Shown in pieces: positions 40,562-45,117 of a stretch of DNA of 64,000 nucleotides. The DNA is from Sandaracinaceae bacterium (GTDB taxonomy: Bacteria > Myxococcota_A > Polyangia > Polyangiales > Sandaracinaceae), in assembly GCA_040218145.1 (NCBI GenBank), contig JAVJQK010000050.1, positions 248,001 through 312,000 on the forward strand, read 5' to 3'. Every line of letters begins with the position of its first letter. The stretch's first letter is position 1. A model generated the notes under the pieces. It worked only from the letters and a program-made list of their open reading frames with translations. It ran no database searches and was not told the DNA's origin. A program made the position numbers and the translations under genes.

Positions 40562-41725
40562 ATGGGGATCATGGATTTCATCAGGCAGGGCACGCAGGAA
40601 ATGATGGTTGCGCGGCCCGACTCGGCCAAGCAGTACATCGTCTACAAGCACCCCGAGCAGACGATCCCGAAGTTCTCGCAGCTGACGGTCGACGCAGACG
40701 AGGCGGCGGTGTTCTTCCGGGATGGCGCCCTGGTCGGCGTGCTCCGGACGGCCGGCGCGGCGCAGCGCCACACGCTGGACACGGGCAACATCCCGTTCCT
40801 CAGCAACCTCGTGGACTCGTTCACGGGCGGGAACATCTTCGTCACCGATCTCTACTTCGTGACGATGCGCCCCTTCCGCGGCGCGCGCTTCGGCGGCGCG
40901 CTCCCGCCCATCAAGGATCCCGAGCTGGAGATCACGCTCACGCCTCGGATCTTCGGTGAGTACGCGTGGCAGATCACGCACCCCGACCGCTTCATCGTCA
41001 GCTACCTCGGCATGGGCGGGCAGCAGTCGAACGAGCAGGTCGAGCGCTGGATCACCACCAAGTTCATGAACGCGGTGAAGAAGAGCCTCCCGCAGTTCAT
41101 CATCCGCCAGAAGGTGGAGGTGCAGCACCTGGCCGCCTATCACGACGAGATCGGCCAGATGTTCATGCAGAAGTGCGAGGACCTCTCCGAGATCGGGGTG
41201 CAGTTCCTCGAGCTCGGTGACTTCTCGATCAACTTCGACGCCGACGATCAGAAGCGCCTCGAGGAGGCTCAGGCGCGCTACGCGGACCTCAAGGTCAAGA
41301 AGCGCGCGAAGGACGAGCTCGGCGGCGGCAACTTCATGAACTACGCCGCGGGCGAGGCGATGCTCGGCGCCGGCCAGGGCATGGCGCAGGGCGGAGGCGA
41401 AGGCGGCGGCGGCGGCGGCGCGATGCAGGGCGGCGCGGGCCTCGGCATGGGCTTCGCCATGGCGAACATGTTCGCGCAGAACATGCAGCCCCAGCAGGGC
41501 CAGCCGCAGCAGCCCCCGCCCCAGCAGCCTCCTCCCCAGCCGGTGCAGGCGGGCGGCGGCATGGTGCAGTGCCCGTCGTGCTCGGCGACGGTCGCCCCCG
41601 GGAAGTTCTGCGCCGAGTGCGGCAGCTCGCTCGTGCCGCAGCCCAAGCCGTGCCCCTCGTGCAGCACCGTCGCGGCGCCCGGCGCGAAGTTCTGCGCCGA
41701 GTGCGGCACGAACATGCAGGGCTGA
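40562..41725 (+). CDS. SPFH-domain protein with two C-terminal zinc ribbons
   Basis: 387 aa (ATG 40562, GGGAGAG upstream). Residues about 25-245 form an SPFH/prohibitin-like region of the COG4260 type (VDADEAAVFFRDGALVGVL, TPRIFGEYAWQITHPDRFI, LGDFSINFDADDQKRLEEAQARYADLK). A Gly/Gln/Pro-rich segment follows, then two CPSC...FCAECG zinc ribbons at about 335-385. Relatives are sometimes labelled virion core-like, but they are ordinary bacterial proteins. There is no transmembrane helix, so it probably assembles on a membrane or target as an oligomer. A strong terminator follows. Confidence 0.85.
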   Translation: MGIMDFIRQGTQEMMVARPDSAKQYIVYKHPEQTIPKFSQLTVDADEAAVFFRDGALVGVLRTAGAAQRHTLDTGNIPFLSNLVDSFTGGNIFVTDLYFVTMRPFRGARFGGALPPIKDPELEITLTPRIFGEYAWQITHPDRFIVSYLGMGGQQSNEQVERWITTKFMNAVKKSLPQFIIRQKVEVQHLAAYHDEIGQMFMQKCEDLSEIGVQFLELGDFSINFDADDQKRLEEAQARYADLKVKKRAKDELGGGNFMNYAAGEAMLGAGQGMAQGGGEGGGGGGAMQGGAGLGMGFAMANMFAQNMQPQQGQPQQPPPQQPPPQPVQAGGGMVQCPSCSATVAPGKFCAECGSSLVPQPKPCPSCSTVAAPGAKFCAECGTNMQG

Positions 41726-41797: not shown

Positions 41798-43012
41798 TCA
41801 GAGGGAGGGCGGCTGCTCCGGCACGCGCTCGCGGACGTCCCGCGCCGACGCCGCGTCTCCGAGCCGCTCGTACGCGTCGGCGAGGAGGGAGACCTCCGCG
41901 TCGCTCGCCGCGTGGTTCTCGAGCACGTAGATGGTGCACTCGTACTCCCCGCGGCCGAAGCACGTCCGCGCGACCGAGAGCCGATCCTCGCTCGACAGCT
42001 CGGGGGTGCCGACCCTCGTCACGATCGCCTGGCGCGCGCGATGCGGGATCACCAGGCCCGCCGCCTGCTCCTCGATGCACTCCCGCAAGCCCTCCGGCCC
42101 GTCGGAGACGTCCACCTCGGTGACCGCGCCGGCCGCGTCGGTGGTCAGGCGCACGTCGAAGATCGTGGTCTCCCGCGTCCCTCGCGAGAGCCAGCAGCCA
42201 TGGAACGCGCGCTCACCGACCGCGCGCACGTCCGGGTCCGACACGAAGTACGGGGAGCGGTGCGCGGGCAGATCCCCGAAGCGCGCCGCGAGCGCCTCGC
42301 CGGTCGCGCTCGTCGGGCGCTCCTTCGTCGCCGCCTTGGCGTGCTCGCGCGGCGCGCTCGTCGGCGCCAGCGTGGCGATCAGCCAGCCCGCGGTCATCGC
42401 GGCCAGGATCGCGCCGATGGCCCCGAGGCGCCGGGAGACGGTCGGCCGCGACACCTGGAGCCGCTCGGCGATCTCCGCCTGGGAGAAGCCCGCCAGGCGC
42501 AGCCCGAGCACTTCGCGCAGCTCCTCGTCGGCGCCGTCGAGGTCCATCAGCTCGCGCGCCACGGCGTTGTCGTGCGGGTCGTCGTGGGAGGCGGCCAGGT
42601 CCGGCTCGCTCCCTCGCTCGAGCTGCGGGGGCACGGCCGCGCGCATCAGCCGCCGCCGCCGCGCGCGCTTGCGCCGCTCCTCCGAGAGGTGGGCCTTCAG
42701 CCGCAGCGTCAGGTAGGAGCGCAGCGAGGTCTTCGCCTCGCCCGCGGTCAGCTCCGCGAGGTAGCGCGGGAGCCAGCGGTCGCAGCTCATCATCAGCAGC
42801 TCGCCCAGGACGTCCTCCGGGTCGGCCACGTCCCGGTAGCTGGGGGCGAGCGCTCGCGCGATCCGCTCGAGCTCCCGGAGCAGCGCCCGCCACGAGGCGT
42901 CGTCCATCTGCTTCGACCACGCGGCCAGCCAGCGCGAGGCGTCCGAGCCCGGCTCGGCGCGCACCGCCTCCGCGACCGTGAACGACCCGCTCTCTTCCGT
43001 CTGGACGCCCAA
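41798..43012 (-). CDS. Sigma70-family-like protein with membrane segment and C-terminal domain
   Basis: 404 aa. The start is taken as TTG 43012, with GGGAGGG ending six bases upstream; earlier codons in the frame are antisense to the kinase region. Residues about 30-125 resemble sigma region 2 (ADPEDVLGELLMMSCDRWLPRYLAEL, SLRSYLTLRLKAHLSEERRK). Residues about 165-200 form a region 4-type helix-turn-helix (LRLAGFSQAEIAERLQVSRPTVSRRL). A single hydrophobic helix follows (about 203-222), then an extracytoplasmic part with CWLSRGTRETTIFDVRLT and a Cys/Glu segment like AgmX modules, ending TPR-like. Extracytoplasmic-function sigma factors with C-terminal membrane extensions are known; this matches no group I can name. 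The target promoter is unknown. Confidence 0.7.
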   Translation of the reverse strand: MGVQTEESGSFTVAEAVRAEPGSDASRWLAAWSKQMDDASWRALLRELERIARALAPSYRDVADPEDVLGELLMMSCDRWLPRYLAELTAGEAKTSLRSYLTLRLKAHLSEERRKRARRRRLMRAAVPPQLERGSEPDLAASHDDPHDNAVARELMDLDGADEELREVLGLRLAGFSQAEIAERLQVSRPTVSRRLGAIGAILAAMTAGWLIATLAPTSAPREHAKAATKERPTSATGEALAARFGDLPAHRSPYFVSDPDVRAVGERAFHGCWLSRGTRETTIFDVRLTTDAAGAVTEVDVSDGPEGLRECIEEQAAGLVIPHRARQAIVTRVGTPELSSEDRLSVARTCFGRGEYECTIYVLENHAASDAEVSLLADAYERLGDAASARDVRERVPEQPPSL

Positions 43013-43108
43013 GACCACCCTCCCGTCACTCTGACACGGGACGAGCCGCGACTTTGGTTCACGGCGCCCGAGATTTGACTCCGGCCGGGGACCCCGCATC
43101 CTGCCTCC

Positions 43109-43435
43109 GTGGGATTGCTCCGCACCCTGCTCGCGGCTGGCTTCGTGCTGGCGTTCGCCTTGCTGCAGTCCGAGGGAGGATGCGGCGGCTACGAGCCGGA
43201 GCCCCGCAAGGGCGAGGGAGACCCCTGCACCCGCACCGACGAGTGCCAGAGCCACCTCGAGTGCAGCGGCGGCGTGTGCCGCGAGCCGTTCGAGCCGGAG
43301 CTGGACTCGGGTCTGCGGGACTCGGGCGCGGCCCCCAGCGACTCCGGGGTGGACCCCGCCGATGCGGGTGGGGAGCGCGACGCGTCCACGGCTGGCGACG
43401 CCGGACCCGATTCGGGGGCGTTCGACGGCGGCTGA
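43109..43435 (+). CDS. Small lipoprotein, Cys-rich head with Asp/Gly tail
   Basis: 108 aa from GTG 43109. An N-terminal hydrophobic segment leads to a possible lipidation site at SEGGC. The short mature head has DPCTRTDECQSHLECSGGVC, the colipase/dickkopf-type pattern of paired Cys common in myxobacterial surface proteins, and the rest is a low-complexity DSG/DAG tail with no visible domain. Divergent from the sigma-like gene, with 96 bp between. It may be a tether or a degraded remnant of a larger protein. Confidence 0.65.
   Translation: MGLLRTLLAAGFVLAFALLQSEGGCGGYEPEPRKGEGDPCTRTDECQSHLECSGGVCREPFEPELDSGLRDSGAAPSDSGVDPADAGGERDASTAGDAGPDSGAFDGG

Positions 43436-43491: not shown

Positions 43492-45117
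<1,626 letters not shown>

What the first reader, a model, noticed from the sequence alone, without database searches (positions are those of the whole stretch)
41798..43012. Membrane-anchored sigma-factor-like protein
Regions resembling sigma 2 and sigma 4 are followed by a hydrophobic helix and an extracytoplasmic domain with Cys/Glu motif similar to AgmX modules. The sigma would be tethered to the membrane and able to sense outside signals without an anti-sigma.
Basis: inference. Interest (0 to 1): 0.6.

Follow-up and report, generated by a model that had tools for sequence, protein, structure and literature searches.

The report
Membrane-anchored sigma-like protein in myxobacteria
A marine myxobacterium encodes a protein in which a diverged transcription-initiation (sigma) factor is joined by one membrane helix to a sensor-like part outside the cell membrane; that layout is known from a few other bacteria, but the outer part and the family look new, and it probably works by being cut free from the membrane.

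Summary
HMMs, profile-profile comparison and AlphaFold/Foldseek all point to sigma factors over both regions. The last sigma4 helix is predicted to run straight into the membrane helix, with no anti-sigma domain between. The outer part has four Cys in two pairs.

The family is rare: five loci in four species (317 genomes of the class searched), one of them a soluble form without the helix. A syntenic orthologue lies in another genus. The C-terminal module (C-x3-G-x3-C) also ends FHA, Ser/Thr-kinase and PilZ membrane proteins.

A tethered sigma is not new in kind: P. putida IutY has the sigma-TM-periplasmic layout and is released by Prc/RseP proteolysis; ECF48/52/53 are similar. Most likely this is a latent sigma held at the membrane and freed by intramembrane proteolysis (inferred, not shown). 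Main rivals: a sigma-derived protein that no longer binds RNA polymerase, and action in place. New variant of a known kind.

The parts
41798..43012 (-). membrane-anchored sigma-like gene, TTG start at 43012, 404 aa
   Evidence: open frame, Shine-Dalgarno-like GGGAGG, codon-position G+C, mostly synonymous change in the same-species copy
42641..42877 (-). sigma2-like region (P0001 residues 47-125)
42422..42535 (-). sigma4-like helix-turn-helix (P0001 residues 161-198), most conserved segment (68% to the orthologue)
42365..42421 (-). hydrophobic helix (P0001 residues 199-217), predicted continuous with the last sigma4 helix
42008..42265 (-). AgmX/PglI-like beta module (about P0001 residues 251-336), Cys 274 and 313
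   Evidence: weak, not listed by NF033768
41813..41995 (-). C-terminal TPR-like module (about P0001 residues 341-401) with Cys 352 and 360 (C-x3-G-x3-C)
43019..43024 (-). putative Shine-Dalgarno sequence before the TTG start
   Evidence: by inspection

Best explanation
It is a diverged ECF-type sigma factor made as a membrane protein: sigma2 and sigma4 in the cytoplasm, one membrane helix grown out of the last sigma4 helix, and an outer part of an AgmX/PglI-like module plus a TPR-like module. While anchored it is latent, because the -35-reading helix continues into the membrane and so should be unable to lie across promoter DNA. An envelope event sensed by the outer part exposes it to a site-1 protease, then an RseP-type site-2 protease cuts in the membrane and frees the sigma domain to join RNA polymerase, as in P. 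putida IutY. Shown by sequence or model: the domain order, the helix, the conservation, and that RseP-type and Prc-type genes exist in the genome. Inferred: topology, latency, cleavage, RNA polymerase binding, and any signal.
For: Sigma2 and sigma4 by HMM and profile comparison. AlphaFold model of the N part: 49 of the 50 Foldseek rows shown (of 454 matches) are, by their descriptions, sigma factors or holoenzyme chains in the sigma position. Helix 188-214 runs from sigma4 through the membrane segment. Four of four tethered family members have a hydrophobic segment (1.91-2.54) right after sigma4. Sigma4 (68%) and sigma2 (44%) are the parts best kept between orthologues; AgmX 15 of 86. Outer Cys come in even numbers: 4, 6 and 4 in the three members that have outer modules. 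Two RseP-type and two Prc-type genes over cut-off in the genome. IutY precedent.
Against: P0001 is below the TIGR02937 cut-off. The Q of the D-V-V-Q-E motif and the W and N positions of typical ECFs are replaced, residues are inserted in sigma2, and the basic second half of the last sigma4 helix is lost, so RNA polymerase or -35 binding may be gone. RseP and Prc are widespread (they ring in 13 and 10 of 14 control genomes), so their presence is weak support. Member G081 lacks both outer modules. No anti-sigma-like inhibitory domain is present, unlike IutY and ECF52. The charge rule is neutral for P0001 (4 K/R in 20 residues on each side). Foldseek E-values are moderate (best 1.7e-3).
Confidence: 0.48

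Rival explanations
1. A sigma-derived protein that has lost sigma function: the helix-turn-helix still binds DNA, or the domain binds a partner such as another sigma or an anti-sigma, and the protein works as a membrane-bound regulator or scaffold.
For: Departures from the ECF pattern in sigma2 and a shortened sigma4; helix-turn-helix much better kept than sigma2; HTH_23 is the best Pfam match.
Against: Sigma2 is still 44% kept in the orthologue, well above the outer AgmX part (15 of 86), and is still modelled as sigma2; a pure DNA-binding role would not need it.
Confidence: 0.27
2. It acts as a sigma or activator while still in the membrane, in the manner of ToxR/CadC-type regulators (recalled), without proteolysis.
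For: Single membrane helix and N-terminal DNA-binding domain.
Against: No linker between sigma4 and the helix; recognition helix and membrane helix are modelled as one, which should block -35 DNA.
Confidence: 0.12
3. The Ser/Thr kinase encoded divergently next door controls it by phosphorylation, as PknT controls EcfP.
For: A Pkinase-TM-PEGA gene starts 480 bases from the sigma-like start and the pair is syntenic in a second genus; phosphorylation-controlled ECFs are described in PMC8999054 (passages).
Against: Divergent, with a lipoprotein-like gene between; the acidic residues of region 2.2 are kept in four of five members, so no phosphate is obviously needed.
Confidence: 0.08

Closest known systems
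IutY of Pseudomonas putida (ECF243 sigma/anti-sigma hybrid)
   Same: N-terminal ECF sigma, single membrane segment, periplasmic C-terminal part in one protein (PMC5411451 passages)
   Different: Outer part is an anti-sigma domain of the cell-surface-signalling kind, working with the receptor IutA encoded next door; here AgmX-like plus TPR-like modules and no such receptor among six neighbours
ECF52/ECF53/ECF48 (e.g. SCO4117)
   Same: Sigma with a C-terminal membrane-spanning extension and outer domain (PMC5826349 passages, PMC8999054 section 3.5.3)
   Different: Those carry a zinc-finger domain besides the membrane helix and are actinobacterial; no zinc finger here
Pro-sigmaK of Bacillus subtilis
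   Same: A sigma held inactive at the membrane and freed by an S2P intramembrane protease (PMC11486902 passages)
   Different: Tether is a short N-terminal pro-sequence with no outer sensor domain
PglI/GltG and AgmX/GltJ of Myxococcus xanthus
   Same: PglI: cytosolic signalling domain (FHA), membrane helix, periplasmic TonB-like part (PMC3169522 passages)
   Different: Cytoplasmic part is not sigma; they belong to the gliding machine
ECF270 (Anaeromyxobacter WP_011419852.1)
   Same: Myxobacterial, listed under 'with regulatory extensions, proteolysis' in the table of PMC8999054
   Different: Sequence not available here, so the relation is untested

Membership tests
ECF sigma factors (sigma70 family) | sequence match over sigma2 and sigma4 | tested here: met
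   TIGR02937 residues 47-197, E 3.1e-9; Pfam Sigma70_ECF over its cut-off; hhalign E 3.4e-10 for the family, 1.8e-4 for sigma2 alone, 1.4e-7 for sigma4 alone
ECF sigma factors (sigma70 family) | curated TIGR02937 cut-off reached | tested here: not met
   36.7 bits against 42.9; 38.9. I therefore call it sigma-like, not a filed ECF member
ECF sigma factors (sigma70 family) | sigma2 and sigma4 folds | tested here: met
   SigW 5wuq_A Z 6.6, 93 aligned, rmsd 3.5 over 13-122; 3mzy Z 8.5, 69 aligned, rmsd 2.6 over 144-214; Foldseek E 1.7e-3 at best, so moderate
ECF sigma factors (sigma70 family) | binds core RNA polymerase and directs promoter-specific initiation | not testable with these tools
   needs in vitro transcription
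IutY-type sigma/anti-sigma hybrids | sigma, single membrane helix and outer part in one chain | tested here: met
   (helix by hydropathy and model only)
IutY-type sigma/anti-sigma hybrids | FecR-like anti-sigma outer domain (FecR-like is recalled) | tested here: not met
   no FecR-type family at E<=1 in Pfam or NCBIfam
IutY-type sigma/anti-sigma hybrids | TonB-dependent receptor gene next door | tested here: not met
   six window neighbours scanned with Pfam
IutY-type sigma/anti-sigma hybrids | activation by Prc and RseP cleavage | not testable with these tools
   genes present, cleavage unknown
ECF52/ECF53 | zinc-finger domain in the extension | tested here: not met
   no zinc-finger match at E<=1; sigma4 runs straight into the helix
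ECF270 | sequence relation to the group | not testable with these tools
   no ECF group HMMs or ECF270 sequence on hand; classification paper not held
AgmX/PglI C-terminal domain (NF033768) | match to the family profile | tested here: inconclusive
   not listed for P0001 at E<=1; own-genome HMM 17.6 bits against best shuffle 9.2 of 2000; one of four family members matches NF033768 at 2.4e-8
TPR domain | helical hairpin repeat fold | tested here: met
   four helices 340-394 at high pLDDT; VIA Z up to 10.8, 62 aligned, rmsd 2.2, among TPR chains; Pfam TPR_19 only E 0.045

The most novel reading that the evidence does not exclude
A new family of anti-sigma-free latent sigma factors in which the lock is geometry: the -35-reading helix of sigma4 is itself the start of the membrane helix, so the protein cannot read a promoter until it is cut. 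Its outer TPR-like module, with an invariant Cys pair, is a plug-in shared in one genome by an FHA protein, a Ser/Thr kinase and this sigma, so that one envelope cue or partner could feed three kinds of output.
Probability: 0.3. Interest if true: 0.65.

Novelty: new variant of a known kind. Interest (0 to 1): 0.42.

Why it matters
PMC8999054 (section 3.5.3, read) names IutY as the only ECF sigma whose proteolytic activation through a fused extension had been characterised by experiment. A second, unrelated design without an anti-sigma domain would test whether tethering alone can silence a sigma. The shared outer module suggests that myxobacteria mix one sensor-like part with kinase, FHA, PilZ and sigma outputs, which would make signal routing in these regulator-rich genomes testable.

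Tried and rejected
Tried without result: phmmer against PDB gave only a 23-residue HTH match at E 0.13 and an unrelated glycosidase; tblastn in phage records gave no match; the genome-contig scan gave only a 99% copy, L001, which shows the same counts of codon differences as G193, is probably the same genome, and was counted once. Foldseek had no row at E<=0.001 with the full-length model (best 1.5e-3) or with the N part (best 1.7e-3): sigma chains fill the N-part list but TM-scores are low; I think because sigma2 and sigma4 are placed differently. In the full-length VIA run only the TPR part was listed; in the N-part run both sigma regions were. The paper PMC3621798 (passages) turned out to be about other sigma factors.

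Considered and rejected: an antisense or chance frame (codon-position G+C, synonymous change, synteny); a hydrophobic helix that belongs to any sigma4 (0 of 63 other sigma hits examined, of 70, show a comparable segment after sigma4; seven hits were not examined: L041, dropped by my script's length filter, and six partial ones below the cut-off). The order, class and phylum searches score only 7 to 16 first-look candidates a genome, so absence from sister genera is not proven.

Not obtained: the ECF270 sequence, the Casas-Pastor 2021 paper, a dedicated membrane predictor, and the syntenic site in sister genera.

Full report
WHAT IS THERE. The gene runs from a TTG at 43012 to the stop at 41800-41798 on the minus strand (404 aa; P0001 carries one extra residue in front, so P0001 numbering is the protein's own plus one). 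GGGAGG stands six bases before the TTG. The frame is open further up to 43576, so the start is inferred; a lipoprotein-like gene starts 97 bases away on the other strand. G+C by codon position is 0.743/0.536/0.970 and the copy in a same-species genome differs by 11 synonymous and 3 non-synonymous codons. The genome G000 has 11.06 Mb in 148 contigs; the nearest named record is a Sandaracinaceae MAG, MED-G138, 99% identical over this protein.

SIGMA PART. TIGR02937 matches 47-197 at E 3.1e-9, but 36.7 bits is under the cut-off of 42.9. All four family members in alignment A1 match that model at E<=1, best 7e-11. Pfam Sigma70_ECF passes its cut-off of 21.1 in P0001 (23.6, best stretch only 156-201) and in the orthologue in L033 (25.4, over 29-191); it fails in the other two, 20.0 and 14.0. 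Profile-profile comparison with 16 ECF-length sigmas of the same genome gives E 3.4e-10; the sigma2 part alone 1.8e-4 (20 column shuffles: best 0.023), the sigma4 part alone 1.4e-7. Departures from the usual ECF pattern are clear in the alignment: about eight extra residues between regions 2.2 and 2.3; the Q of the D-V-V-Q-E motif is G or A in five of five members, while the E or D after it is kept in four of five; the W and N of the T-W-L...A-x-N stretch are replaced; the first part of sigma4 is shortened; the basic second half of the last helix is missing.

STRUCTURE. AlphaFold2 on a 12-row alignment: mean pLDDT 76.1, pTM 0.46. Helices 12-125 mostly near or above 90, sigma4 about 80-89, helix 188-214 unbroken from the recognition helix through the hydrophobic segment, a four-strand plus helix module 254-316 at lower confidence (about 50-78), and four helices 340-394 mostly above 90. 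The N part alone from five sequences: 77.5, pTM 0.54, same helices. Foldseek with the N part: 454 matches at E<=10, none at E<=0.001; of the 50 rows shown, 49 are by description sigma factors or the sigma position of a holoenzyme (I did not check each chain) and one is a recombinase. VIA: SigW 5wuq_A Z 6.6, 93 aligned, rmsd 3.5, over 13-122; 3mzy Z 8.5, 69 aligned, rmsd 2.6, over 144-214. These Z values are middling for helical proteins; the weight lies in both regions, in the right order, agreeing with sequence.

MEMBRANE HELIX. The 19-residue hydropathy maximum is 1.91 at 199-217, and 2.12, 2.47, 2.54 right after sigma4 in the three other tethered members. Controls from the same genome, from the sigma domain to the end of the frame or of the fetched stretch: 29 sigmas, maximum 1.36; 34 further hits, maximum 1.63 and that inside sigma4. 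So 63 of the 70 other TIGR02937 hits were examined, 58 of the 59 over the cut-off, and none has such a segment after sigma4. No dedicated predictor was available. The charge rule does not decide for P0001 (4 K/R in 20 residues on each side). The even Cys counts outside (4, 6, 4 and 0 in the four tethered members) and the company that the outer modules keep support N-in, C-out.

OUTER PART. NF033768 does not list P0001 at E<=1 but matches one of four members at 2.4e-8. With an HMM of 25 AgmX tails of this genome, the orthologue in L033 has 38.6 bits in its last AgmX module, and P0001 residues 221-345 score 17.6 bits, against a best of 9.2 in 2000 shuffles. The genome has 42 NF033768 hits at E<=0.001, 25 over the cut-off. 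The last module is a TPR-like pair of hairpins (VIA Z up to 10.8, 62 aligned) with A, C, G, C, L, L invariant in 13 of 13 aligned copies. It was found in 61 of 177 genomes of the order at E<=1e-6 and three times strongly in this genome: here, after two FHA domains and a helix (L152), and after a Ser/Thr kinase and a helix (L154). I scanned ten proteins with this module with Pfam at E<=1e-4: FHA in six (L152, L157, L161, L165, L169, L182), kinase in two (L154, L178), PilZ in one (L168), nothing in one (L158). These ten were chosen from 26 loci handled, where the motif was not found in three and misplaced in L154; it is not a survey.

FAMILY AND NEIGHBOURS. With the family alignment: order search, 7 of 183 genomes at E<=1e-6, of which two (32.8 and 37.3 bits) are ordinary-looking ECFs (sequences); class search, 6 of 317 genomes at E<=1e-8, one of them an ordinary-looking ECF at 38.5 bits; phylum search, 11 of 377 at E<=1e-6, apart from G000 and G002 only matches of 29 to 38 bits. 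I take the family as G000 and G193 (one species), G002 (two copies), G081 and G054: five loci in four species. G054 is a soluble form, 216 aa, with no hydrophobic segment. L083 (G424) shares the N-terminal stretch and has an HTH after an insertion. The block histidine kinase - VWA-like protein - Band_7/zinc-ribbon protein - sigma - lipoprotein - Ser/Thr kinase with PEGA - CAP protein is the same in the window and in L033 from another genus, so the two are orthologues. The second G002 copy overlaps by ATGA the end of a secreted PEGA protein that carries the same C-x3-G-x3-C-x4-L motif.

CONSERVATION. Between P0001 and the orthologue: sigma4 68%, sigma2 44%, linker 34%, membrane segment 26%, AgmX 15 of 86, TPR 23 of 60. 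Conservation is thus strongest on the cytoplasmic part, which argues that sigma2 is not a relic.

MECHANISM. Shown: the order of parts, the hydrophobic segment, the conservation, and two RseP-type and two Prc-type genes over cut-off in the genome (one RseP-type gene about 49 kb away on the same contig). Inferred: N-in topology, latency, release by cleavage, RNA polymerase binding, signal. The lack of a linker between the recognition helix and the membrane makes work in place unlikely and cutting the natural switch. The chief doubt is whether the diverged sigma2 still binds RNA polymerase.

WHAT IS KNOWN. IutY has the same plan and is freed by Prc and RseP (PMC5411451, passages). PMC8999054 (passages, section 3.5.3 and table lines) names IutY as the only one then tested, and lists ECF36, 48, 52, 53, 115 and 270 as further cases; ECF270 has an Anaeromyxobacter example, which I could not compare. 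SCO4117: PMC5826349, passages. PglI is FHA - membrane - TonB-like (PMC3169522, passages). Pro-sigmaK is another membrane-held sigma (PMC11486902, passages). Literature searches (listings seen) showed no paper on a sigma joined to AgmX or to this TPR-like module; the library holds only open papers. ToxR/CadC, and IutY's outer part being FecR-like, are recalled.

VERDICT. The shared outer module and the fused sigma4-membrane helix are the parts worth an experiment.

Noticed in passing
L152, L154, L157, L161, L165, L168, L169, L178, L182 and window 41813-41995: A C-terminal TPR-like module with C-x3-G-x3-C ends membrane proteins whose cytoplasmic part is FHA, Ser/Thr kinase, PilZ or sigma; found in 61 of 177 genomes of the order.
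   Followed up: partly
window 43492-45117: Divergent Ser/Thr kinase with N-terminal zinc ribbon, membrane helix and PEGA; its very end (SEVVDPWA) is also kept in the orthologue in L033, and the tail of the sigma-like protein in L034 repeats a similar DPFAR motif.
   Followed up: no
window 40562-41725: Band_7/SPFH protein with a double zinc ribbon, convergent with the sigma-like gene and syntenic in L033.
   Followed up: partly
L032:4134-5177: Secreted PEGA protein overlapping the second G002 sigma-like gene by ATGA and carrying the same Cys motif; possible partner.
   Followed up: no
L075:1480-2127 (minus strand): Soluble relative of 216 aa with no membrane segment, so the tether has been gained or lost within the family.
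   Followed up: partly
L083:1495-2352: More distant relative (another family of the phylum) with the same N-terminal stretch and an insertion before a C-terminal HTH.
   Followed up: no
window 43109-43435: Small Cys-rich lipoprotein-like gene starting 97 bases from the sigma-like start on the other strand, also present in L033; no Pfam match.
   Followed up: no
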